From positions 372,001 through 436,000 of the forward strand of contig NZ_PJBB01000003.1 in assembly GCF_002836595.1 (NCBI RefSeq): a DNA stretch of 64,000 bases, given 5' to 3'. A program made the translations under genes and the position numbers. The notes beneath the pieces were generated by a model that searched no databases, had not been told where the DNA came from, and saw nothing but the letters and a program-made list of their open reading frames with translations. How positions within the stretch are numbered: position 1 is the stretch's first letter; every line of letters starts with the position of its first letter. This stretch comes from Tenacibaculum sp. Bg11-29 (GTDB lineage: Bacteria > Bacteroidota > Bacteroidia > Flavobacteriales > Flavobacteriaceae). Positions 17,412 to 47,604 of this stretch are shown here, in pieces.

Positions 17412-17485
17412 GGTCCTATAGCTCAGTTGGTTAGAGCACCTGACTCATAATCAGGTGGTCCCAGGTTCGAGTCCTGGTGGGACCA
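17412..17485 (+). tRNA. tRNA with anticodon CAT (Met elongator or Ile2)
   Basis: A complete cloverleaf of 74 bases. The acceptor GGTCCTA pairs with TGGGACC plus discriminator A; the anticodon stem CCTGA/TCAGG encloses loop CTCATAA; the T arm CCAGG/CCTGG has loop TTCGAGT. Anticodon CAT could be elongator Met or the lysidine-modified Ile2; I cannot separate these by eye. Its last 43 bases plus one following base are the left attachment repeat of the island. Confidence 0.95.
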
Positions 17486-17486
17486 C
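17443..17486 (+). repeat. attL: left attachment repeat of the island
   Basis: 44 bases from the anticodon loop to one base past the tRNA end, identical to 47922-47965. Sequence identity stops at both ends of this interval, which is the pattern left by integrase-mediated insertion into a tRNA 3' end. Confidence 0.9.
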
Positions 17487-17726: not shown

Positions 17727-19187
17727 ATGCAAGGCAAGATATTTTTAAATACCAGAAGTGGGCAACAGTTAAAAAATGGGGCTTATCCTTTAATATGTGA
17801 ATTGACAGCTAACGGACAACAAAAACCATTTTCTTTAAAAATGAAGTTCCATATTGAAGATTGGGATTTTAATAAACAAGAACCTAAGAAAGATAAAACA
17901 AGACAATTTTTAATCCGTAAGAAAAAAAGCCTTTTAGATAGCTTATTGCTAAAAGCATTAGATGACAATAGCATAACAATAAATTACATAAAAAGTGCCT
18001 TAAACGGTAAACTAGAACTCAACGAAACTGGAAAAGTTGATTTTATAAATTTTGGTTTTGAATTATCTAAAGAAAAGAAAGAAATAGTTTCGTCTAAAGG
18101 AATTAAAAAAGAAGGAAATGCTGAATCTTATATAACAGCACTAAATCAGTTAAAAAAATTCAAAAGCCAAATAGATATTTCAGAAGTTGATTATAATTTA
18201 CTTACAGAGTTTAAGAACCAGAAACTTAAACTAGGTAATAAAAAAAATACGGTAGCTGCCTACATGAGGGCATTAAGAGCAATTTATAACGAATGTACCA
18301 GGCGACATAAAATAAAGCCCGAACACAATCCTTTTGAAGGCGTATTTTCGGGAATATCTGTAAAAAAAAATAGAACAAAAAAAAGAAACCTTTCGGCAGA
18401 ATCAATTAAGCTATTAGAAAGTTTTGAAGGCAACTTAGTTAAAGGACAACAATTAGCAATCGATTTATTTTTACTTCAATTTTATTTTGGAGGTCAAGAT
18501 TTAACAGACATTTATCACTTAGAAAAAAAACAACTTTCAAAAAACGGGAGAGTATATTTTACTCGTGGTAAATTAGATGAAGGTGGCTATGAATTTGATT
18601 TAAAAATCTTCAACAAAACCAATATCCTATTAAACAAATTCATTAGCAGAGACAACTTTCTTATTCCTGGGAGAAAAGATTATACCGGTTATAAAAATTA
18701 TAGAAGTAGAGTTAATAACAATTTAGATAAAACACAAAAAAGATACAACGAGCATATACAATTAATTGAATCTCTTACAGGAAAGGAATATCATAAATTA
18801 GAACTCTTACCCCTGGGCGGTAAAATTACAACCAAAGTTGCTAGACACACTTTTTCTACTATTGCAAACAGAAAATATATTGAACCTGATTTACTACGTG
18901 CCTTAATGGGGCATGAAAGAGATGATGTTGATACCATATACAAAGATGTGTACCCAGAAGAAGAAAGAGATAAATTTCATAGTGAAATTATAGCTACATC
19001 AAATATAAAACTCGAGACAAAGCTTGTGTATCAATTAGAGTACTTTAACGAAAAAAATACAAGAAGCTGGAAATATAAATATTTTGATAAACAACCGAGT
19101 TTAAAAGAAATCACAGACCAAACAACTTTAAAAAAATATTCTCAACCTCGGTATTTTAAAAAGATCTATCTTTTAAAAAAACAGTAA
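17727..19187 (+). CDS. Tyrosine-type site-specific recombinase (island integrase)
   Basis: A 486-residue integrase with an N-terminal arm-binding region (QPFSLKMKFHIEDWDFNKQEPK type), a SAM-like core-binding domain (about 110-215) and a C-terminal catalytic domain. Visible catalytic features are ARHTFST (box II Arg-His), LMGHERDDVDTIYKDVYP (His and the nucleophilic Tyr). The usual box I Arg is not at its expected place: the equivalent segment reads FYFGGQDLTDIYHL. About 100 residues follow the Tyr, longer than usual. Position next to attL and direction away from the tRNA fit the integrase of this island. Confidence 0.9.
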   Translation: MQGKIFLNTRSGQQLKNGAYPLICELTANGQQKPFSLKMKFHIEDWDFNKQEPKKDKTRQFLIRKKKSLLDSLLLKALDDNSITINYIKSALNGKLELNETGKVDFINFGFELSKEKKEIVSSKGIKKEGNAESYITALNQLKKFKSQIDISEVDYNLLTEFKNQKLKLGNKKNTVAAYMRALRAIYNECTRRHKIKPEHNPFEGVFSGISVKKNRTKKRNLSAESIKLLESFEGNLVKGQQLAIDLFLLQFYFGGQDLTDIYHLEKKQLSKNGRVYFTRGKLDEGGYEFDLKIFNKTNILLNKFISRDNFLIPGRKDYTGYKNYRSRVNNNLDKTQKRYNEHIQLIESLTGKEYHKLELLPLGGKITTKVARHTFSTIANRKYIEPDLLRALMGHERDDVDTIYKDVYPEEERDKFHSEIIATSNIKLETKLVYQLEYFNEKNTRSWKYKYFDKQPSLKEITDQTTLKKYSQPRYFKKIYLLKKQ

Positions 19188-19196
19188 AAACATACT

Positions 19197-19230
19197 ACAA
19201 AACAACACTCACAAGGTGTTGTTTTTTTAT
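19197..19230 (+). terminator. Integrase terminator (first copy)
   Basis: ACAACAC and its partner GTGTTGT form the stem, followed by T7; ten bases after the integrase stop. A near copy lies at 23978-24011, flanking the cassette array on the other side. Confidence 0.7.
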
Positions 19231-19541
19231 ACTCAAAATATTATTAATCCTTCGTTTACTCTATTAATTAAACATTAACTATTCCGCTAGGTAAATAAAA
19301 CGATAAAAAGTTACTTTGACATAATTAAGGTAAATATAGTTAACCGAATATTCGGTTAGCCAATAAATAGGTATGACTTTTTAATTTGTATTTACCATGT
19401 TAGAAAGCTATTAAAACTAAGAAAATCTGTTGATATATAAAATATTTCGCAACTTAAAATTAATTAGTAAGTTTGGAAAAAGAAATAGATATGTAGTTAA
19501 TATTAACTATATATCTTTGTTACCTGCAAGCGTAAAAAACA
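19231..19541 (+). other. Intergenic leader of the cassette array
   Basis: No gene seen. It holds an 18-base perfect palindrome TAACCGAATATTCGGTTA (19341-19358) that runs into a GTTAGCC core-like site (19354-19360, followed by AATAAAT), then a candidate attC (19447-19527). TATCTTTG at 19513-19520 is a possible -7 box for the first cassette gene. Confidence 0.5.
19447..19527 (+). repeat. Candidate attC site preceding the first cassette
   Basis: Begins with a degenerate R'' (TCGCAAC) followed by TTAAAATTAATTAG, which resembles the block after R'' in the site at 21724, and ends at R' GTTACCTGC (19519-19527), the 5' end of the DUF2310 cassette. The stem pairing is imperfect. Confidence 0.5.
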
Positions 19542-20309
19542 ATGTACACTCAAAGAATATCAATAGAAATAAATACAAAAGTTAACAAAGACGAACTTAT
19601 TGATGAGTTTGGTTTACTTATGTCTTTCTACCGTAGTAATGGACAGACACAAGGTCGAATTGAATCTCAATATATTGAAAACGATAAAATAGTTTGTTTA
19701 CCTTTTACTCTTGAAAAACATTCTTTAGAGAAAAAAAATAATAACTATTATGTAAACAAGCAAACTGAAAAAATTGAAAACCTTTGTAATTCTAAACTAA
19801 CATTTAAAACAGTAGGAAAATCTTATGATAGTTACAAAACACCTTGTGAATGCGAAAAATCTGATTTTTATATTTTAATTACTAATTATATTACGATTGA
19901 GTCTCCAGTAACTTGTGGAACTTGTAACAAGTCTGTACCACTTTATAGATTTCCTATTTATCATGATTATGGTTATTTGCCAATACTAAGTTGGGAAACC
20001 AATTATGTCTCTTGCGATAGCTTACAGATGAATTGTGAAGTCGGCGAACGATGGGCTTTAAATCAAATGCAAAAAATAAATTCACAACTCTCTAAACAAG
20101 GACTTGAAATATGCAGAAAAATTGCAGAATTAACTTTAGTTCCGACCTTTTACTATTTACATAATTATAAAAAAGTTAAAGAAGACCAATCAGAAAGACA
20201 TTGTCCAAATTGTAATGAGAAGTGGGATTTAAAAAAACAAATACATGATTGTTATGACTTTAAATGTGATAACTGTAATATAATATCGACAATATCACCA
20301 AACACCTGA
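19542..20309 (+). CDS. Zn-ribbon protein, DUF2310-like (cassette gene)
   Basis: 255 residues, soluble. The middle has TCGTCNKSVPLYRFP and the C-terminus has two CxxC pairs (HCPNCNEKW and FKCDNCN), as in the DUF2310 family of possible nucleic-acid-binding zinc-ribbon proteins. The family function is unknown. It fills one integron-type cassette: the cassette begins at G/TTACCTGC (19519) and its 3' attC begins with the reverse complement GCAGGTAAC (20320). Confidence 0.75.
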   Translation: MYTQRISIEINTKVNKDELIDEFGLLMSFYRSNGQTQGRIESQYIENDKIVCLPFTLEKHSLEKKNNNYYVNKQTEKIENLCNSKLTFKTVGKSYDSYKTPCECEKSDFYILITNYITIESPVTCGTCNKSVPLYRFPIYHDYGYLPILSWETNYVSCDSLQMNCEVGERWALNQMQKINSQLSKQGLEICRKIAELTLVPTFYYLHNYKKVKEDQSERHCPNCNEKWDLKKQIHDCYDFKCDNCNIISTISPNT

Positions 20310-20319
20310 AATAATGCCA

Positions 20320-20515
20320 GCAGGTAACAATGTCTAAAAAATATAGGCCGTTTGTGCTAAACCGATAGATCTGTGAATATTTACAAAGTACGCTAAATAT
20401 AAAATTTAGCATTTAACCGAAATATAAAAGCAAAATATTTATATTTAGCTAAGTAAAAAACCGAAACGAAGTGCTTTTTAACTGCCCTGCGCTTCTTATA
20501 CTGAGACGTAATGTG
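20320..20515 (+). repeat. attC-like recombination site 1
   Basis: Starts with GCAGGTAAC, the exact reverse complement of the core at the 5' end of the same cassette (GTTACCTGC, 19519-19527), and ends near CGTAATGTG (20507-20515). Internal blocks (ATATAGGCCGTTTGTGC, GCTAAATATAAAATTTAGC, ATATTTAGCTAAGTAA) are shared with the sites at 22892 and 36224. Confidence 0.7.
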
Positions 20516-20583
20516 AAATAACAAAAAATAATGTCTGTTGATATAGAAATTAAGTTCAATTCATACTATTAAAAAAATCCATT

Positions 20584-20982
20584 ATGAAATGGAAAATAAT
20601 TAAAGAACATAAAAGAGAATATGCTGATACAGCATATTATTTAAAGGCTGAAAGAGACGTAACAGATGGAACTCTTGTCCTAGAGATTAGCTGGGTTGAA
20701 AATTTCATGTATGATTTATCAGTTGATTTATACACAAAAAACACAGGTCTGAAATCTATTTTCAAAAAGATATCGAAGAATTATATTTATGGCCATTTAG
20801 TTTTTCCTAGTGATCGAATTGAAAAATACGGACACCAACTAATGAGAATTATAGATGACTCGCCTATGAAAAAACTCAAGAGATTAGACGAACTTCAAGG
20901 AGACAGTGTCCTAAATCACAATTTATCTAATAAGCATGACATAGAGATTAAAACATTACTCCCTGAGAAAGTTTATAATTAG
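20584..20982 (+). CDS. Cassette protein of unknown function
   Basis: 132 residues, no signal peptide, mixed alpha/beta composition with acidic and basic patches (VLEISWVENFMYDLSVDLYT; FPSDRIEKYGHQLMRIIDD). No family recognised. It is alone in its cassette, whose 5' core (GTAATGTG) and R'' (CACATAAC, 20994-21001) are reverse complements with one mismatch. Confidence 0.65.
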   Translation: MKWKIIKEHKREYADTAYYLKAERDVTDGTLVLEISWVENFMYDLSVDLYTKNTGLKSIFKKISKNYIYGHLVFPSDRIEKYGHQLMRIIDDSPMKKLKRLDELQGDSVLNHNLSNKHDIEIKTLLPEKVYN

Positions 20983-20993
20983 AGAGTAAAAAG

Positions 20994-21015
20994 CACATAA
21001 CACGGTATATAAAAC
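20994..21015 (+). repeat. Truncated attC-like site 2
   Basis: CACATAACACGGTATATAAA has the R'' core and the GTATA box seen in the other sites, but the rest is missing: the next ATG is 30 bases after the core. A deletion has fused two cassettes here. Confidence 0.6.
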
Positions 21016-21030
21016 ATTTACCAAAAAACT

Positions 21031-21717
21031 ATGAAAAATAAATTTGTACGATTTCTTTTGATTATTAATGGAATACTAATACCTATTTTCATTCTTTTTG
21101 TATTAGGAAATCATTTTAAAAATAAATTTAATTCGAATGATGAATTTAATGAGCTTAAAGTTGTAGAAACTGAATATGAAATAAAACAAAGTTCTCTAAT
21201 CGGAATCCCTAATTCAGAAAATTATTTGGTTGCAGAATATGCTAAAATAATAGATGATTCAGAATTTGTAGTTGAGGAAATTGAAGAAATAAATTTACCA
21301 TATGAAGTTCCAAAAAACACAGTGAACCTTATTTTTCTTGACAAAAACTTCAATCAAAAAAGAAGATTATTAAAGGAAAATGCTTCAATCAAAAGTATGT
21401 TTATTTCAAACGCTTATTCTCATAACAAGGATATGATTAGAAAAATAACTCATTTGTCTTTTTATATTGCTGTAGAAGATTCAAACGGTGACGGAAAAAT
21501 TGACAGAAGAGACCAACATTATGTTTATGTATCAGATTTAAACGGAGAAAACCTAATCAAAGTTTCTGACCGAAAAATAAAACAATATGAATGGGTAAAT
21601 AAAAATAAAGAACTTTTATTAAACTTTAAAACCGAAAGTTCTAAACCTAAATACGGACTTTACAATATTGAAAATAAAATATTGTCAGAAACGGAAAATA
21701 TAACAACAAATAAATAA
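21031..21717 (+). CDS. Membrane-anchored protein with EF-hand-like loop
   Basis: 228 residues with one N-terminal membrane anchor (FLLIINGILIPIFILFVLG); the rest is outside the cytoplasm if the positive-inside rule holds. A calcium-loop-like DSNGDGKIDRRD is at about 150-161, followed by VYVSDLNGENLIKVSDRKIKQYEW, a propeller-like repeat fragment. Unknown function. It sits in a cassette that lost its 5' core by deletion (see the truncated site before it); its 3' attC is intact. Confidence 0.65.
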   Translation: MKNKFVRFLLIINGILIPIFILFVLGNHFKNKFNSNDEFNELKVVETEYEIKQSSLIGIPNSENYLVAEYAKIIDDSEFVVEEIEEINLPYEVPKNTVNLIFLDKNFNQKRRLLKENASIKSMFISNAYSHNKDMIRKITHLSFYIAVEDSNGDGKIDRRDQHYVYVSDLNGENLIKVSDRKIKQYEWVNKNKELLLNFKTESSKPKYGLYNIENKILSETENITTNK

Positions 21718-21723
21718 AAACAT

Positions 21724-21858
21724 TTTACAACATCGTATAAAATTAATTGCTAGGACAAGCTTACTTACGAAAATCCTCGCAGATTTTCTATTACGTTTGT
21801 ATTTACTAAATTAGATACTTAAACAACGCAACTAACCTTATACAAACTCGTTAGCCGC
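21724..21858 (+). repeat. attC-like recombination site 3
   Basis: R'' TTTACAAC with ATCGTATAA, and at the other end TTATACAAACTCGTTAGCC: GTATAA and TTATAC are complementary inner boxes, AAC and GTT complementary outer cores. A central TTTACTAAAT/ATTTTCT region forms the variable loop. The block AAATTAATTGCTAG and TACGAAA(A/G)TCCTCGC are shared with the minus-strand site at 44688-44856. Confidence 0.72.
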
Positions 21859-21866
21859 AATAAAAA

Positions 21867-22193
21867 ATGAGACCGCTAAAACAAATAGAACTTAAATTAT
21901 TACAAAGACTTACCAATAGTCAATTTGATATTCCTCAAATGGTGAGGGAAATAAATGATGAAGGAATGGGTTCAATATCATTTGACTTAGAAGGTTCACA
22001 ATCACGTAAAAGACAAATAGTATCAGCAGAATACATTGATAAAGATGGCGTTTTAATTGATATCGAATTAACTTGCGACAATAATGATAAGCTTTTTGAA
22101 TTAGACTTTTGGAAAGTTGACTTTAGTCCGTTAATCTCTTTTCCAACATTTAAAAGCTTGAAAATTAAAACTCCCAATAATGAAAATACCTAG
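21867..22193 (+). CDS. Small cassette protein, DUF6984-like
   Basis: 108 residues: MRPLKQIELKLLQRLTN helix, then an acidic beta-rich part (DKDGVLIDIELTCDNND, LFELDFWKVDFSPL). The layout resembles short DUF6984-type proteins, but I am not sure. Overlaps the next gene by 14 bases, so the two are translated together from one two-gene cassette. Confidence 0.6.
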   Translation: MRPLKQIELKLLQRLTNSQFDIPQMVREINDEGMGSISFDLEGSQSRKRQIVSAEYIDKDGVLIDIELTCDNNDKLFELDFWKVDFSPLISFPTFKSLKIKTPNNENT

Positions 22194-22899
22194 AATAAAA
22201 GGAGTAATAGACCGAAGAATTTTAATCAACTATCAAGTTGATAAAGAAGTATTGGAAAACTATTTACCAAAACCTTTTAAACCTAAATTAGTAAACGGAA
22301 AAGGGATTGCTGGAATTTGCCTAATCAGATTAAAAGAAATTAGACCGAAAGGGTTACCAAAACAAATTGGAATCTCATCTGAAAACGGAGCACATAGAAT
22401 CGCGGTTGAATGGACTGAAAATGGAGTGCAAAAAGAAGGAGTTTATATTCCAAGAAGAGATACTTCTTCAAAATTAAATTCATTAGCTGGTGGAACTATA
22501 TTCCCTGGAATTCATCATTTAGCAGACTTTACAGTAAATGAGAGTAATGGTAATTATGAGGTTGGATTTGTAAGCGCTGACAAAACTTCTCTGTCAATTA
22601 GAGCAAAAGAAACTAATACTTGGAATGACGAAAGTGTATTTAAAAACCTTCAATGTCTGTCTGATTTCTTTGAAGATGGTTCTATTGGATATTCGCCTGA
22701 CAAAAATGATTATGATGGACTTGAATTGAAAGCTTATAATTGGAAAGTATCGCTTTTAAATGTTGACTTTGTAAAATCGAGCTTTTTTGAAAATGAAGAT
22801 ATTTTCCCAAAAGGTTCTATTAAATTTGACAATGCACTTTTAATGAAAGACATTGAACACGAATGGATAGGGTTGAAGAAAATAAAAAACTGCACCTAA
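22180..22899 (+). CDS. DUF2071 (YqjF-like) protein
   Basis: 239 residues of the DUF2071 family, which shares the acetoacetate-decarboxylase fold. Seen: RRILINYQVDKEVLENYLPKPFKP at the N-terminus and GAHRIAVEW...GVYIPRRDT in the middle, both typical. Catalytic function is not established for the family. The stop codon lies inside the R'' core of the following attC (CCTAAC), as often in compact cassettes. Confidence 0.78.
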   Translation: MKIPRIKGVIDRRILINYQVDKEVLENYLPKPFKPKLVNGKGIAGICLIRLKEIRPKGLPKQIGISSENGAHRIAVEWTENGVQKEGVYIPRRDTSSKLNSLAGGTIFPGIHHLADFTVNESNGNYEVGFVSADKTSLSIRAKETNTWNDESVFKNLQCLSDFFEDGSIGYSPDKNDYDGLELKAYNWKVSLLNVDFVKSSFFENEDIFPKGSIKFDNALLMKDIEHEWIGLKKIKNCT

Positions 22900-23091
22900 C
22901 AAGGTATAAAAAACATAGGGCGTTTGTGCTAAACCGAAAGGTTTGTGAGTATTAACAAAGTCTGCTAAATATAAAATTTGGCATTTATAGTAGTAAAGAT
23001 AAAAGCAAAATATTTATATTTAGCTAAGTAATAAACCGAAACAATAGTGCTTATCACCTGCCCTACGTTCCTATACTAAACGTTCTAAAAC
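22892..23091 (+). repeat. attC-like recombination site 4
   Basis: R'' ACCTAAC (exact RYYYAAC) followed by AAGGTATA, and at the far end TATACTAAACGTTCTAAAAC: TAAC/GTT and GTATA/TATAC are complementary in order. Inner CATAGGGC pairs with GCCCTACG. It shares its internal blocks with the sites at 20320 and 36224. Confidence 0.75.
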
Positions 23092-23095
23092 ATTT

Positions 23096-23749
23096 ATGAA
23101 AAAAATAGTATTATTGATAATTATTTTTCTTGCCTTTATTATAAATATCCAAGCTCAATTTGAATATAAACCTGATACAACGAACTTACATTGCATCAGC
23201 CAATTTGAAAAAGCTAAGGAAGACTTTAGTAATAAAACTTTTGTTTTAAAATTTCAAAAATCATATGATTACACTAAAACGCATAAAAAAATAATTGAAA
23301 ACTATGGCATTCAAATTGAAGCTTCAAGAATTTACATTAATAATTGTTATGATTATAAAATTATAGAGTTACTGAATGAAAAACATGGTTTTAACTTCAT
23401 TGAACATACTAAAAATGAAGCCAAAGAACTAGATAAAAATAGTAGTGAAAGTAATTTAGCAGTTTCTAATACAAAAGAGAAAGATTCTATCTCAGACCCG
23501 ATTGGTTATATAAAAAAGGAAAGCATTGGGGGGAAACTTGATTATGGTAAAATATTGATCGGATATGGAGCTCATAATGCTCAATATAAGGCATACCTTT
23601 ATTCTATTTGGATCTGGACATCTCATGTTAAGGAATTAGGGATTACTAGACGAAAAAAAATAATTAAACTTTGGGAAGAAATTCATGAACGCAAAATGAC
23701 AACGGATGAAAAGAATGTAATTAAATACGGAATAAAAATAAAAAAATAA
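23096..23749 (+). CDS. Secreted cassette protein of unknown function
   Basis: 217 residues with signal peptide MKKIVLLIIIFLAFIINIQAQ. The first half includes a charged region with LHCISQFEKAKEDF and NCYDYK Cys residues; the second half is basic (GYGAHNAQYKAYLYSIWIWTSHVKELGITRRKKIIKLW). No family recognised. Cassette ends match: GTTCTAAAAC at the 5' end (23082) against GTTTTACAAC (23783), 9 of 10 complementary. Confidence 0.65.
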   Translation: MKKIVLLIIIFLAFIINIQAQFEYKPDTTNLHCISQFEKAKEDFSNKTFVLKFQKSYDYTKTHKKIIENYGIQIEASRIYINNCYDYKIIELLNEKHGFNFIEHTKNEAKELDKNSSESNLAVSNTKEKDSISDPIGYIKKESIGGKLDYGKILIGYGAHNAQYKAYLYSIWIWTSHVKELGITRRKKIIKLWEEIHERKMTTDEKNVIKYGIKIKK

Positions 23750-23782
23750 CCGTGTATTCTTACTCTAAAAAGACAAAAAAAC

Positions 23783-23959
23783 GTTTTACAACAAAAGCTA
23801 TAATTAAAACGGGGTTGGTGCTTTTTAATAATGTCCGTCAAATCTTTTGATTTGACTTTAATATTGAAAAAGGTAAAACAAAATAAAAAAATTAGCTAAG
23901 TAATTAACCCAAAGTTTACTACTTTTAAACCCCTTACTAACAATAGCCAAACGTTAGCC
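23783..23959 (+). repeat. attC-like recombination site 5 (array end)
   Basis: R'' GTTTTACAAC, then AAAAGCTAT and GGGG; at the other end CCCC, then AATAGCCAAACGTTAGCC. CTAT/ATAG, GGGG/CCCC and AAC/GTT pair in order. It closes the array: 19 bases beyond it begins the second copy of the integrase terminator. Confidence 0.7.
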
Positions 23960-23977
23960 AATAAAAAATTACTTACC

Positions 23978-24011
23978 ACAAAACAACACTCAGCAAGTAT
24001 TGTTTTTTTAT
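23978..24011 (+). terminator. Second copy of the integrase terminator
   Basis: Same 34-base layout as 19197-19230 (ACAAAACAACACTC...TTGTTTTTTTAT) with a few changes that weaken the stem. Flanks the cassette array on its right. Confidence 0.6.
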
Positions 24012-24203
24012 CTAAAACTTAAAACGTTAAATAAATGTTAACGCTTTAAGGGTTGCCCCTATTTACAACTAGGGGTACTAGGTATTGTACATTAAAAAAA
24101 AAGTGCGTTTATTTGTTGTAAAATTGCAAACGCCTAATACATAACACTTAAGGATAATAACTTTATTTTTGCTTTAAAATATTAATTTTAAATAAAAGTA
24201 AAA
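24012..24203 (+). promoter_or_regulatory. Leader with hairpins and -7 box
   Basis: Holds CGTTAA/TTAACG (24025-24043) and CCCCTA/TAGGGG (24056-24075) inverted repeats, then TATTTTTG (24164-24171) as -7 box 32 bases before the small lipoprotein gene. The hairpins could be integrase or repressor sites (inference). Confidence 0.45.
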
Positions 24204-44687: not shown

Positions 44688-44856
44688 AAGCCCAACGTGT
44701 TTCTTTAGTTTGTATTAAATATCTTTAGATAGAAAAAGAAGAGAACTATAACGTGTTTTAAGTACTAAATTTAGCAAATAAATCACAGATAGAAAGCCGC
44801 GAGGACTTTCGTAAATATGCTAGAACTAGCAATTAATTTTATAAGGTGTTGTGCTT
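44688..44856 (-). repeat. attC-like site between two inverted cassettes
   Basis: On the minus strand it starts AAGCACAACACCTTATAA and ends ACACGTTGGGCTT. AAATTAATTGCTAG and ACGAAAGTCCTCGC are shared with the plus-strand site at 21724-21858, so these are one family. Its R'' AAGCACAAC exactly complements the 5' core of the 44864 cassette. Confidence 0.72.
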
Positions 44857-44863
44857 AGTGCTT

Positions 44864-45931
44864 TTAAATTTTATTTATTAATTTCTCTAACTCAGTCAAT
44901 TGCCCTTTGTATTGTTTGATAATACTTTCTAAATTTTTTGACATATAGTCTTTTTCCAATTCTATGCCTTTTATTGCATTTAATCCTTTAGTCATTGCAC
45001 TAGCAATCCCTTTAGTTCTTGGGTCGAGTCTAAGATGAGCCATAATTTCTACTAACGGTAGAAAAAATTCTCTTCTCAAAACAAATGGATTAAAGTTCCC
45101 CGCTCTCAGATAAGGCATTATTTGAGCAGAATGTAAATCAGCAATTGGTATATATCTTGGATCATTCAAAGGGTCGGAGTTCGATTCCTTTTCAAGTTCA
45201 ACACCGTAATCTTTAAATGCACTACTAAACTCTTGTAGACTTAAACTTAACGAAGTGGTGTGTTTTGAAGTTCCTGATAAGTATCTATTAAATTTTTCTC
45301 TCAAGGTTTCATAAAGATGTTCCAAAATACTAACATAGCCGTTTGTGCTATTCGAAATTTTCACAATTTCTTCAAATACCTTTTTTTTATTGTTAAGTTC
45401 GATGTATATAATTAACTCATTCTTGTCAAGAGATTTGAAAACTTCTCCGCTTAGTGAAGAATACAATTCCAAGTTTCGAATTTTAAAGTCTTCTTTTTTG
45501 AGTTCTTCGGAATATTCATCAAGCGACTGAATTTGCTTTTTAATGGGTTCTTCCAAGCTACGCAACTCCGCAATCCAACGTTCTCCAGATTTTATGATTT
45601 TCTTTTTATCCGAACGCTTTTCAATTATTCCCTTTACCCAAATACCTAAAAGCAATGTCAATATTGGTAACAAATATTTCAGCCAATCAACTTTAGTCTT
45701 TTCCTTTACCATTACGACTTTAGTTAAGTTGTCTTTAGATATAGGGATTGTCAACTCATTTTTAAAGTTGAGTGTTATCGTGTCAACTTTTTGAGAACTT
45801 CTCTTGATTATTGTATCTGATTGGATTAGTTTTTTCTCATTTGTTAAAGAATCAACTTTGAGTCCTATTGAATCTTGACTATAAAGATTAATTGAGATGA
45901 AAATTAGTAATATATTTAGAAATTTGTTCAT
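44864..45931 (-). CDS. Membrane protein with signal and long helical domain (cassette gene)
   Basis: 355 residues: N-terminal signal (MNKFLNILLIFISINLYSQ), a short outside segment, one membrane helix (WLKYLLPILTLLLGIWVKGII) at about 85-105 and a helical cytoplasmic region of 245 residues with coiled-coil character. No family recognised. Fills one cassette with exact 9-base complementary ends (45943-45951 and 44848-44856). Confidence 0.7.
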   Translation of the reverse strand: MNKFLNILLIFISINLYSQDSIGLKVDSLTNEKKLIQSDTIIKRSSQKVDTITLNFKNELTIPISKDNLTKVVMVKEKTKVDWLKYLLPILTLLLGIWVKGIIEKRSDKKKIIKSGERWIAELRSLEEPIKKQIQSLDEYSEELKKEDFKIRNLELYSSLSGEVFKSLDKNELIIYIELNNKKKVFEEIVKISNSTNGYVSILEHLYETLREKFNRYLSGTSKHTTSLSLSLQEFSSAFKDYGVELEKESNSDPLNDPRYIPIADLHSAQIMPYLRAGNFNPFVLRREFFLPLVEIMAHLRLDPRTKGIASAMTKGLNAIKGIELEKDYMSKNLESIIKQYKGQLTELEKLINKI

Positions 45932-45942
45932 TTTTTCGTGTT

Positions 45943-45951
45943 AAGCACAAC
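45943..45951 (-). other. Cassette 5' core (R')
   Basis: GTTGTGCTT on the minus strand, 11 bases before the ATG; complementary over all nine bases to the R'' at 44848-44856. Confidence 0.6.
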
Positions 45952-46030
45952 TAGTTACATAAGGAATAAAGTTCTCGTTTATCAAAAATTAAAAGTAGCG
46001 TATCAACAATAAAAAAGACACTAAAAAACC

Positions 46031-46065
46031 GTACAATAAGTAAGGTTTTACCTTACTTATTGTAC
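46031..46065. terminator. 16-bp perfect inverted repeat after the second integrase
   Basis: Arms GTACAATAAGTAAGGT (46031-46046) and ACCTTACTTATTGTAC (46050-46065) with 3-base spacer. No T run of terminator type follows, so a protein-binding or recombination-related site is also possible. Confidence 0.5.
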
Positions 46066-46185
46066 AAATTTGATCTAATAATAAAGTGATCTATAAAAAA
46101 GAGTTATGAAAGCTTATTATTTGAGCATAAGCGAAAGATATATCAGCATGAAAGAGGTTTTTAATATAAAAAAAAGAATAGTAAT

Positions 46186-47466
46186 TTATAACATTTTATA
46201 ATCGTAATTACCTGACCAATCTTCAGGTAGCTGCCCTCCTATTTCTCTTAAATATTTTCTAGTTGTACTTTCGTCAACATGTCGCATAATCTCTTGTATT
46301 TTTAATACTGCTTGATACTCGCTTAACTTCTCTTTTTTTATAAACTGATAATATAAGCTTAATGCGCTGGTATGTCGAAAGGAGTAAATACCATAGTCTT
46401 CTGACAAATTAAAATGATCTTTAATTTTTTTAAATCTCCGACCAAACCAATCCTCTCTTGATTTTTCTTTTTTTGTTTCCCAATAAGTAATTTTTTTTTC
46501 TTTAGTAAAAATCAACATATCACTATCAAAAGTATTCAACTCTAAACTAGAAAAATAGAAATGTAGAGGTTTTACTAACCTAATATAAACTCTATCTTCA
46601 GTTTTGCTTTCAATTTCAATAGTATTATCTACTAAATCAATATTTTCAACTTTTAATCTAATAATCTCAATTGGCCGTAAAAAAGAATACCACATAACCT
46701 TAATGTATCTATATAAATACGGGTCATGTTCTTCGGTATATTTTAAAATATTATCAAGTTGTTGGTGATTAAAAGGTTTATTTTTTTTTGCTTTACTTTT
46801 TAGAGCTGCAATTTTAGAAATAAAATTATATTTAATAATTTCTTTCTCTTCTAACTCAGTGAATAATCCAGATAATAATCTTTTATGATTATTTCGACTA
46901 GTATTACCCATCCTTTTTGTCAAATCTCCTAGATAAAAAGAAATGTGTTTTTTTGTTAAATATTCGATGGGTTTTTTATCTAGTTTTTTTTCTTCTAACC
47001 ATTTAATGAAAGAATTTAAATAAACCGTGTTTACATCTGTTGATGATTCTTTCCAGCTATTCTCCCTATGGTTAAAAGCTATATTAAGAGCTTCAGTAGT
47101 GGTATATGCCTCAGTATTTACATCAACCTCTTTTCCTCTTTCTTTAAATGGACTATATCCATCTTGTAAATATCTTTTTAATGCTTTCTGTAAATTCTTG
47201 GCAGCTTCCTCTCTACTCGCTAAAGTTTTTAATCTATTTATACCTTTTCTTTCTGTAAATTTTTCCATCAATCCAGTGAACGGATTTCTATAATAGTAGT
47301 AAACGTGCCAAAATTTATTTAAGGTAATAACTCTTTTTCCGTCTATTTCTTCCTTTGGTCTGTATATTTTTGGTTCCGAATACAATTTTTTTAGTATATT
47401 AAATCTTGAATTAAGAGACAAAGATACAGGTTCATTTACAGGTTCACTAATGTATATTTTTGGCAT
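46186..47466 (-). CDS. Second tyrosine-type recombinase
   Basis: 426 residues: N-terminal arm/SAM-like domain (ALNIAFNHRENSWKESSTDV... to about 225), then the catalytic domain with FLRPIEIIRL (box I Arg), YSFRHTSALSLYY (box II Arg-His) and IMRHVDESTTRKYLREI (His and nucleophilic Tyr). Box I is complete, unlike in the left integrase. It lies directly after a tRNA-Leu gene in the same direction, the usual place for an integrase that uses that tRNA. Confidence 0.9.
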   Translation of the reverse strand: MPKIYISEPVNEPVSLSLNSRFNILKKLYSEPKIYRPKEEIDGKRVITLNKFWHVYYYYRNPFTGLMEKFTERKGINRLKTLASREEAAKNLQKALKRYLQDGYSPFKERGKEVDVNTEAYTTTEALNIAFNHRENSWKESSTDVNTVYLNSFIKWLEEKKLDKKPIEYLTKKHISFYLGDLTKRMGNTSRNNHKRLLSGLFTELEEKEIIKYNFISKIAALKSKAKKNKPFNHQQLDNILKYTEEHDPYLYRYIKVMWYSFLRPIEIIRLKVENIDLVDNTIEIESKTEDRVYIRLVKPLHFYFSSLELNTFDSDMLIFTKEKKITYWETKKEKSREDWFGRRFKKIKDHFNLSEDYGIYSFRHTSALSLYYQFIKKEKLSEYQAVLKIQEIMRHVDESTTRKYLREIGGQLPEDWSGNYDYKML

Positions 47467-47504
47467 AAAAAAAATGCTTTAAAAAGAATAAACCTTTTAA
47501 AGCA
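47467..47504 (-). terminator. Terminator of tRNA-Leu abutting the integrase start
   Basis: TGCTTTAAAA and TTTTAAAGCA stem (47475-47504) with a T run on the minus strand (47474-47467) that ends at the base before the integrase ATG. The integrase therefore has no room for a separate promoter other than one overlapping this hairpin. Confidence 0.65.
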
Positions 47505-47522
47505 CTAATATCATTGAATTTG

Positions 47523-47604
47523 TACGGGCAAAGAGACTCGAACTCTCACACCTTGCGGCACTAGATCCTAAGTCTAGCGTGTCTATCAATTCCACCACAT
47601 CCGC
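47523..47604 (-). tRNA. tRNA-Leu (anticodon TAG), acceptor stem poorly paired
   Basis: Leu-type with long variable arm: anticodon loop CTTAGGA within TAGA/TCTA, T arm AGAG-TTCGAGT-CTCT. The 5' acceptor GCGGATG pairs badly with the 3' TGCCCGT (three Watson-Crick pairs of seven). The 3' half may derive from another element, so charging is doubtful. Confidence 0.75.

What the first reader, a model, noticed from the sequence alone, without database searches (positions are those of the whole stretch)
19354..23959. Integron-type cassette array without an integron integrase, with base-matched cassette ends
Five genes or gene pairs are each followed by a related 110-200 base imperfect palindrome. The test of a cassette is that the core at its 5' end complements the R'' of its own 3' site. 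That holds here: GTTACCTGC (19519) vs GCAGGTAAC (20320), 9/9; GTAATGTG (20508) vs CACATAAC (20994), 7/8; GTTCTAAAAC (23082) vs GTTTTACAAC (23783), 9/10; GTTAGCCGC (21850) vs GCACCTAAC (22892), 7/9. ACCTAAC at 22894 fits RYYYAAC. No IntI is present. Such IntI-less arrays (CALINs) are known in Proteobacteria; a Bacteroidota array inside a tRNA island would be unusual.
Basis: partly seen in the sequence, partly recalled or inferred. Interest (0 to 1): 0.85.

Follow-up and report, generated by a model that had tools for sequence, protein, structure and literature searches.

The report
Second integron system in Bacteroidia bacteria
Many bacteria of the class Bacteroidia seem to capture and store genes with an integron-like system of their own, run by a recombinase that is not the known integron integrase, and the flagged region is one of its gene arrays; if it works as it looks, standard integron searches have probably missed it.

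Summary
The flagged repeats are real cassette sites. Four full attC-like palindromes and one half site separate the genes; an attI-like leader (19345-19518) and a terminator trailer (23953-24012) bound the array. The genome has no canonical IntI over cut-off but encodes, 1.7 Mb away, a 376-aa Xer/IntI-type recombinase followed by an attI-like site and a cassette with 10/10 matched ends. Relatives occur in 128 of 247 Bacteroidia genomes, canonical IntI in 1 of 247. Elsewhere this gene heads arrays of up to 24 sites. Cassette ends match at >=5 of 6 variable positions in 242 of 275 cases, against 21 of 324 within a site. Stems favour bottom-strand folding in 306 of 330 sites, the top in 9, the canonical attC preference. 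But the recombinase lacks the IntI-specific insert (91-96 against 133 residues), forms its own clade, and its sites miss the RYYYAAC/GTTRRRY consensus (both in 2 of 330). It looks as if it works like an integron but is not an IntI integron: a new variant, not found described in nine literature searches. No recombination was observed.

The parts
17412..17486 (+). tRNA-Met; probable attachment target of the island (inference)
   Evidence: ARAGORN and Rfam; in the 6 genus relatives fetched the upstream synthetase gene and a tRNA-Met near it are kept, while none of the window ORFs of >=90 aa from 17.7 to 36.5 kb match in the 18-19 kb read
17727..19187 (+). tyrosine recombinase with arm-binding domain (CTnDOT-like, label recalled), probable island integrase; not matched by the integron-type family
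   Evidence: Pfam Arm-DNA-bind_5, Phage_int_SAM_5; no TIGR02249 match
19190..19230 (+). 41-bp terminator-like trailer copy, 85% identical to 23971-24011
19345..19518 (+). leader with attI-like core; palindrome AGATATGTAGTTAATATTAACTATATATCT at 19487-19516, insertion point GTT at 19519; related copies in the genome at 1988055, 1989454 and 4463285, core only or partial at 2072089 and 2701881
19519..20328 (+). cassette 1: ORF 19542-20309 (DUF2310), own ends GTTACCTGC/GCAGGTAAC 9/9
20320..20515 (+). attC-like site 1 (core GTA instead of GTT)
20508..21001 (+). cassette 2: ORF 20584-20982, ends GTAATGTG/CACATAAC 7/8; its attC is a left half only
21031..21717 (+). ORF of a cassette that seems to have lost its 5' end (next to the half site)
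21723..21858 (+). attC-like site, 94 bits to a model built from other genomes
21850..22900 (+). cassette 4: ORFs 21867-22193 (DUF6984) and 22180-22899 (DUF2071-like), ends 7/9; the second gene occurs in three other genera, in two of them with fully matched cassette ends
22892..23091 (+). attC-like site
23082..23792 (+). cassette 5: ORF 23096-23749, ends 9/10
23783..23962 (+). attC-like site, last of the array
23953..24012 (+). trailer: R' GTTAGCCAATAA plus terminator-like hairpin; relatives follow sites elsewhere in this genome (L072, L073, L066)
44743..45951 (-). second platform: attI-like end TATGTAACTA|GTTGTGCTTA (core 45942-45951), cassette with ORF 44864-45931, attC-like site 44743-44857 (score 42.5); own ends match 10/10
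46186..47466 (-). tyrosine recombinase beside tRNA-Leu (47522-47604), directly upstream of the second platform; role unknown

Best explanation
The region is an integron-like cassette array of a system found in Bacteroidia. A Xer/IntI-type tyrosine recombinase (here the 376-aa protein at G000:C3:2090134-2091264) is proposed to recognise the folded bottom strand of attC-like sites, cut at G|TTR, excise cassettes as circles, and insert them next to an attI-like site (often an inverted repeat 1-7 nt before GTTR). In the circle the two cassette ends would form a near-perfect R box of 9-10 bp, a cassette-specific barcode. The integrase can sit in cis at a large array, as in other genera, or act in trans on dispersed attI-like leaders, as proposed for the window array. 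Shown by sequence: cassette anatomy, end matching, strand-biased folding, linkage of attI and cassettes to the recombinase family, and one cassette gene recurring with different matched ends. Inferred: that the recombinase catalyses the reaction, that the bottom strand is the substrate, the cut position, and trans action.
For: Cassette ends: 242 of 275 adjacent pairs match at >=5 of 6 variable positions, against 21 of 324 within a site, 15 of 243 two sites on and 214 of 5000 random (43 loci); own genome 10 of 16. Strand bias: 751 bottom-favouring against 118 top-favouring stem mismatches; 306 sites against 9, 15 neither; DNA folding better for the bottom strand in 307 of 330. Covariation: 12 of 21 stem pairs have changes on both sides that keep the pair, in 30 sites. 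Linkage: attI plus first cassette in 44 of 60 Bacteroidota family loci examined, 25 of 445 shuffles, 2 of 29 outside homologues. No sites upstream in any locus, and on the other strand in 1 of 39 and 1 of 56 loci; upstream sequence was only about 1-3 kb, up to 8 kb. Cassette exchange: the DUF2071 gene in 4 of 199 family genomes including its own, with ends GTTAGTGGC/GCCACTAAC in G079 and GTTGGGCTTA/TAAGCCCAAC in G040. Of 239 cassettes with >=9/10 matched ends, 200 have the longest ORF in array direction, 7 opposite, 32 no ORF >=50 aa.
Against: No recombination has been observed. The recombinase lacks the IntI-specific insert that canonical integrases use on attC (recalled). In the integrated array the two R boxes of one site match little beyond GTTR. 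16 of the 60 family loci showed no attI plus cassette with my test, G144 (L137) has the recombinase and no array in 16.8 kb, and Mesonia, a Flammeovirgaceae MAG and a Dokdonia MAG also gave none; a few of the 44 positives (L114, L120, L143, L211, L217) look like chance or wrong picks. The window array is 1.7 Mb from the recombinase and partly decayed (a half site, a mutated core, a 7/9 match). Single-site folds are only modestly better than shuffles. Sites are related to each other, so the counts are not independent events.
Confidence: 0.86

Rival explanations
1. Canonical CALIN: cassettes of ordinary IntI integrons acquired by transfer and left without an integrase.
For: Same architecture and orientation (R''-L''...L'-R', gene before attC); CALINs are common elsewhere (PMC9024848, passages).
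Against: R-box consensus met on both sides in 2 of 330 sites; canonical IntI in 1 of 247 Bacteroidia genomes; arrays start at an attI-like site beside another recombinase.
Confidence: 0.05
2. Dispersed repeats (MITE- or REP-like) between genes, with no cassette movement.
For: One 200-bp subtype is scattered over the chromosome.
Against: Variable ends match across the enclosed gene, not across the repeat; linkage to one recombinase family; same gene with different matched ends in other genera.
Confidence: 0.03
3. RNA hairpins: terminators or mRNA stabilisers downstream of genes.
For: Stems after genes; compensatory changes.
Against: Wobble bias favours the bottom strand, the opposite of what an RNA copy of the top strand needs; no run of five T in the 10-nt closing R' box in 330 sites (sequence further on was not checked); terminator-like hairpins appear separately in the trailers.
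Confidence: 0.02
4. The cassettes are moved by XerC/XerD or by the tRNA-island recombinases rather than by the 376-aa family.
For: In the window and at 3.97 Mb, arrays lie just downstream of phage-type recombinases.
Against: Those recombinases and two others of the genome are 21-25% identical where they align at all; in other genera the array starts at the family gene; XerC and XerD loci show no sites in the 1.2 kb of downstream sequence held.
Confidence: 0.06

Closest known systems
Integrons (IntI, attI, attC; sedentary chromosomal integrons and CALINs)
   Same: Tyrosine recombinase gene, adjacent attI-like site, arrays of mostly one-gene cassettes each with a palindromic site, GTT core, cassette own ends complementary, bottom-strand fold favoured, mostly unknown cargo in the small sample scanned.
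   Different: Recombinase lacks the IntI-specific insert and scores below the TIGR02249 cut-off (198.6 against 265 bits); R boxes are cassette-specific barcodes of about 10 bp, not GTTRRRY/RYYYAAC; the integrase gene points the same way as the array; Bacteroidia distribution.
XerA / NF040815 tyrosine recombinases (5HXY, 4A8E)
   Same: Best NCBIfam match (234.6 bits over a cut-off of 220) and best Foldseek match (5hxy, E 1.9e-16; IntI 2a3v follows at 6.1e-16).
   Different: XerA resolves chromosome dimers (recalled); here most members have an about 100-aa N-terminal domain and a cassette array; homologues outside Bacteroidota show no attI plus cassette above chance (2 of 29).
XerC/XerD of the same genome
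   Same: Tyrosine recombinase catalytic domain.
   Different: Separate genes in this genome; far away in the tree.

Membership tests
Integron (canonical) | IntI with the IntI-specific additional domain near patch III | tested here: not met
   TIGR02249 198.6 bits under the cut-off of 265, matching in two pieces with profile positions 180-238 unmatched; distance from first arginine motif to HxxR 91-96 in 22 of 22 family members, 133 in 8 of 10 IntI rows (motif not found in the other two), 98 in XerD, 91-92 in two archaeal/Patescibacteria homologues
Integron (canonical) | attI site adjacent to the integrase gene | tested here: met
   attI-like site plus matched first cassette in 22 of 25 near-clade and 22 of 35 other family loci; 25 of 445 shuffles; 2 of 29 outside homologues; inverted repeat score >=8 in 18 of 29 hand-listed sites (26 family loci, 2 leaders, 1 plasmid) against 1.8% of shuffles
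Integron (canonical) | Array of cassettes, each a gene plus attC, ends complementary | tested here: met
Integron (canonical) | attC consensus R'' RYYYAAC and R' GTTRRRY | tested here: not met
   R' 9, R'' 13, both 2 of 330 sites
Integron (canonical) | attC folds and recombines as single-stranded bottom strand | tested here: inconclusive
   folding bias met; recombination itself cannot be tested here
Integron (canonical) | Recombination activity attC x attI | not testable with these tools
   needs a cell assay
IntI clade | Recombinase groups with IntI in a tree | tested here: inconclusive
   separate clades, IntI apart from the Bacteroidia family across a 95/82 branch, but the AU test does not reject a joint clade, p 0.19
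CALIN | Cluster of attC-type sites with no integrase of the family nearby | tested here: met
   no family member in the window; at least 53 model matches in clusters over the chromosome, one family member at E <= 1e-75

The most novel reading that the evidence does not exclude
The Bacteroidia system is a second, independently evolved integron: a XerA-type recombinase without the IntI domain came to use folded single-stranded cassette sites, spread through about half of the class, works in trans on many attI-like platforms in one genome, and supplied cassettes, possibly including tet(X3), to other bacteria.
Probability: 0.4. Interest if true: 0.95.

Novelty: new variant of a known kind. Interest (0 to 1): 0.88.

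Why it matters
Bacteroidia are held to be almost free of integrons: IntegronFinder 2.0 reports, for Bacteroidetes proper, In0 elements and one complete integron in Salinibacter ruber (PMC9024848, passages read). If these are working integrons, a gene-capture system in about half of Bacteroidia genomes has been overlooked, plausibly because both the integrase model and the site consensus exclude it (IntegronFinder itself was not run here). It would make an open question testable: whether the IntI-specific domain is needed to recombine folded cassette sites. It also offers a source for mobile genes of Bacteroidota origin: the recombinase gene beside tet(X3) in the two plasmid records I looked at is a truncated relative of this integrase.

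Tried and rejected
First scanner was too strict and missed the window sites; replaced by the motif-plus-stem scanner. The scanner's threshold was 38, where shuffles give 1 hit in 768 kb. Folding single window sites gave modest z-scores (-1.54, -0.81, -3.21, -1.75), so single folds were not used as proof. The reverse-strand count is no control, because the cassette pattern reads the same on both strands; shuffles gave 20 hits in 559 kb there, so single hits of that test mean little. The idea that the 486-aa island recombinase moves the cassettes: not the main reading, see rivals. AU test for one origin with IntI: not rejected, so independent origin stays open. Pfam on cassette proteins: of 8 real cassette ORFs given, 2 had a family; the ninth entry was a stretch I chose wrongly, not an ORF. 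In one search I left ten loci out of the lists (L204, L206, L210, L224, L238, L247, L254, and the IntI-like L258, L261, L263). The structure of the N-terminal domain alone could not be run. A second structural aligner was not available.
Full report
OBSERVATION. Four full palindromic sites and one left-half site lie between the genes. A scanner made from sites elsewhere in the genome scores three of the four above anything in 12 shuffled 64-kb strands; the fourth has a mutated core. A covariance model made only from other genomes finds at least 53 sites at E <= 0.01 in this 4.54-Mb genome, mostly in clusters, one of them at window 21722-21859 with 94 bits (150 of 7894 candidates scored).

THE CASSETTE TEST. 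If a site belongs to the gene before it, the variable part of R'' should match the start of that gene's cassette, that is the R' of the previous site. In 43 loci of other genomes (36 fetched around the recombinase, plus 7 in which one search had shown arrays) 242 of 275 adjacent pairs match at 5 or 6 of the 6 variable positions, 180 of them fully; the two ends of one site do so in 21 of 324, sites two apart in 15 of 243, random pairs in 214 of 5000. In the own genome 10 of 16 pairs do, and four of the window's cassettes give 9/9, 7/8, 9/10 and 7/9. The scanner requires AAC and GTT, so the first three positions match by construction; the six counted positions were not used to find sites.

STRAND BIAS. 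Among 330 distinct sites, mismatched stem columns that become G.T wobbles on the bottom strand number 751, those that become wobbles on the top strand 118; 306 sites lean to the bottom, 9 to the top, 15 neither; DNA folding energy favours the bottom strand in 307 and the top in 22 of 330. The stem score used to find sites treats both kinds alike, although the short motif part may carry some bias, and the sites are related. 12 of 21 stem pairs show changes on both sides that keep the pair in 30 sites. This is the strand preference known for canonical attC sites (PMC2727003, abstract read) and the opposite of what an RNA hairpin would need.

THE RECOMBINASE. The genome has no TIGR02249 match over its cut-off. 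The best match is a 376-aa protein at C3:2090134-2091264(-): 198.6 bits to TIGR02249 (cut-off 265) and 234.6 to NF040815, 'site-specific tyrosine recombinase/integron integrase' (cut-off 220). 42 bp after its stop lies GTTGTAAAAC behind the palindrome ATATATGTACCAGTACATATAT, and the next site's R'' is GTTTTACAAC, a 10/10 match. In 149 family genomes, 90 have a match at E <= 1e-60, falling roughly into a near clade (53-62% identity over the full length) and a farther set. In loci whose contig continues, arrays mostly follow directly: 24 sites in G059, 18 in G075, 15 each in G117 and G128 within the stretch read. An attI-like site plus matched first cassette was found in 22 of 25 near-clade and 22 of 35 other Bacteroidota loci with at least 900 nt downstream, in 25 of 445 shuffled downstreams and in 2 of 29 homologues outside Bacteroidota; 6 of 31 near-clade, 9 of 44 other and 3 of 32 outside loci in the lists were not examined, for short downstream sequence or because the gene was not recovered. 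Some positives there are probably chance or wrong picks (L114, L120, L143, L211, L217), and 16 of 60 gave none.

DISTRIBUTION. Canonical IntI over cut-off: 57 of 198 genomes of the GTDB phylum, but 1 of 247 in the class. The new family at E <= 1e-75: 128 of 247 genomes and 81 of 135 genera of the class. Named loci with arrays or an attI plus cassette include Winogradskyella, Seonamhaeicola, Algibacter, Rufibacter, Algoriphagus, Aquiflexum and a Sphingobacteriales MAG; Mesonia, a Flammeovirgaceae MAG and a Dokdonia MAG gave none. The own family is Flavobacteriaceae, since G164 of that family carries a protein identical to that of Algibacter onchidii.

RELATION TO INTI. The distance from the first catalytic arginine motif to HxxR is 91-96 residues in 22 of 22 family members and 133 in 8 of 10 IntI rows (no clear motif in the other two); XerD has 98, two other homologues 91 and 92. 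So the family resembles Xer proteins in this respect. A quick tree puts 60 rows in one clade, all named as Bacteroidota but one unassigned MAG, and IntI in another; in the careful 50-row tree they lie apart across a 95/82 branch. The AU test does not reject a joint clade (p 0.19). The model of the recombinase (mean pLDDT 86.8, pTM 0.56) matches XerA and IntI (2a3v) about equally. The N-terminal 100 residues have no Pfam match.

THE WINDOW ARRAY. It starts with a leader (19345-19518) whose 30-bp attI-like palindrome ends 2 nt before GTTACCTGC; related leaders stand at 1988055, 1989454 and 4463285, the last with ATAAACACACCAGTGTGTTTAT, the palindrome type seen beside the integrase in other genera, although its core reads GTC instead of GTT. 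It ends with a trailer (GTTAGCCAATAA plus terminator-like hairpin) whose relatives follow sites elsewhere in this genome. So the genome has several platforms without an integrase that a single integrase could serve in trans; that is inference. In the six genus relatives fetched (of seven searched) the neighbouring synthetase gene and a tRNA-Met are kept, none of the window ORFs of >=90 aa from 17.7 to 36.5 kb match, and one weak site (score 39.2, G001) was seen. The DUF2071 gene of cassette 4 occurs in 4 of 199 family genomes, its own included: in G079 with ends GTTAGTGGC/GCCACTAAC, in G040 with GTTGGGCTTA/TAAGCCCAAC and a full palindrome; in G029 the cassette starts with GTTAGGTGT, which fits the window's R'' GCACCTAAC (8/9) better than the window's own start does (7/9). 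Both ends change together, as the cassette reading predicts.

LITERATURE. Nine searches on the system and one on tet(X3) surroundings of the held open-access library; in the listings I saw no description of this system. Passages read: PMC9024848, PMC8618304, PMC9668308, PMC8138268, PMC2426708, PMC8352920, PMC7494873; abstract and outline: PMC2727003. PMC9024848 reports In0 and one Salinibacter integron for Bacteroidetes proper. PMC9668308 names the IntI-specific domain among the defining traits of IntI. PMC7494873 describes the arrangement xerD-tet(X3)-res-orf1-ISVsa3 and does not use the words integrase, recombinase or integron. Preprints and most subscription journals were not searchable, so prior description cannot be excluded.

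VERDICT. A real cassette system that works like an integron by the sequence tests available, but fails two defining features of the IntI family. Recombination itself is untested.

Noticed in passing
window 44743-47604 (-): A second cassette platform beside tRNA-Leu: phage-type recombinase, attI-like end, one cassette (355-aa ORF) with ends matching 10/10.
   Followed up: partly
L303 (G000:C3:3960001-3979000): A large cluster of sites (about 3950-3973 kb) also follows a 400-aa phage-type recombinase; whether island recombinases and cassette platforms go together is unexplained.
   Followed up: partly
L300 4986-7007 and L302 (Acinetobacter indicus plasmid and pHH1107): The recombinase gene (TnpF) before tet(X3) is a truncated relative of this integrase (58% identity over query 164-376); an attI-like palindrome lies between it and tet(X3), and a half-site-like sequence follows tet(X3) (7/10 end match; my formal test found no site). 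50 of 85 plasmid records hit were Acinetobacter; only these two were looked at.
   Followed up: partly
L301 (Chryseobacterium plasmid): Family integrase on a 66-kb plasmid with two sites downstream and a group II intron reverse transcriptase nearby: a possible mobile form.
   Followed up: partly
L297 2220-3370: In G029 the DUF6984/DUF2071 cassette is followed by other sequence before the next site; it resembles group II intron ends (recalled, not tested).
   Followed up: no
L137 (G144): Family recombinase with no array in 16.8 kb downstream.
   Followed up: no
recombinase residues 1-100: Conserved N-terminal domain, predicted beta-beta-alpha-beta-beta-alpha, without a Pfam match; L135, at 305 aa, seems to lack it.
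   Followed up: partly
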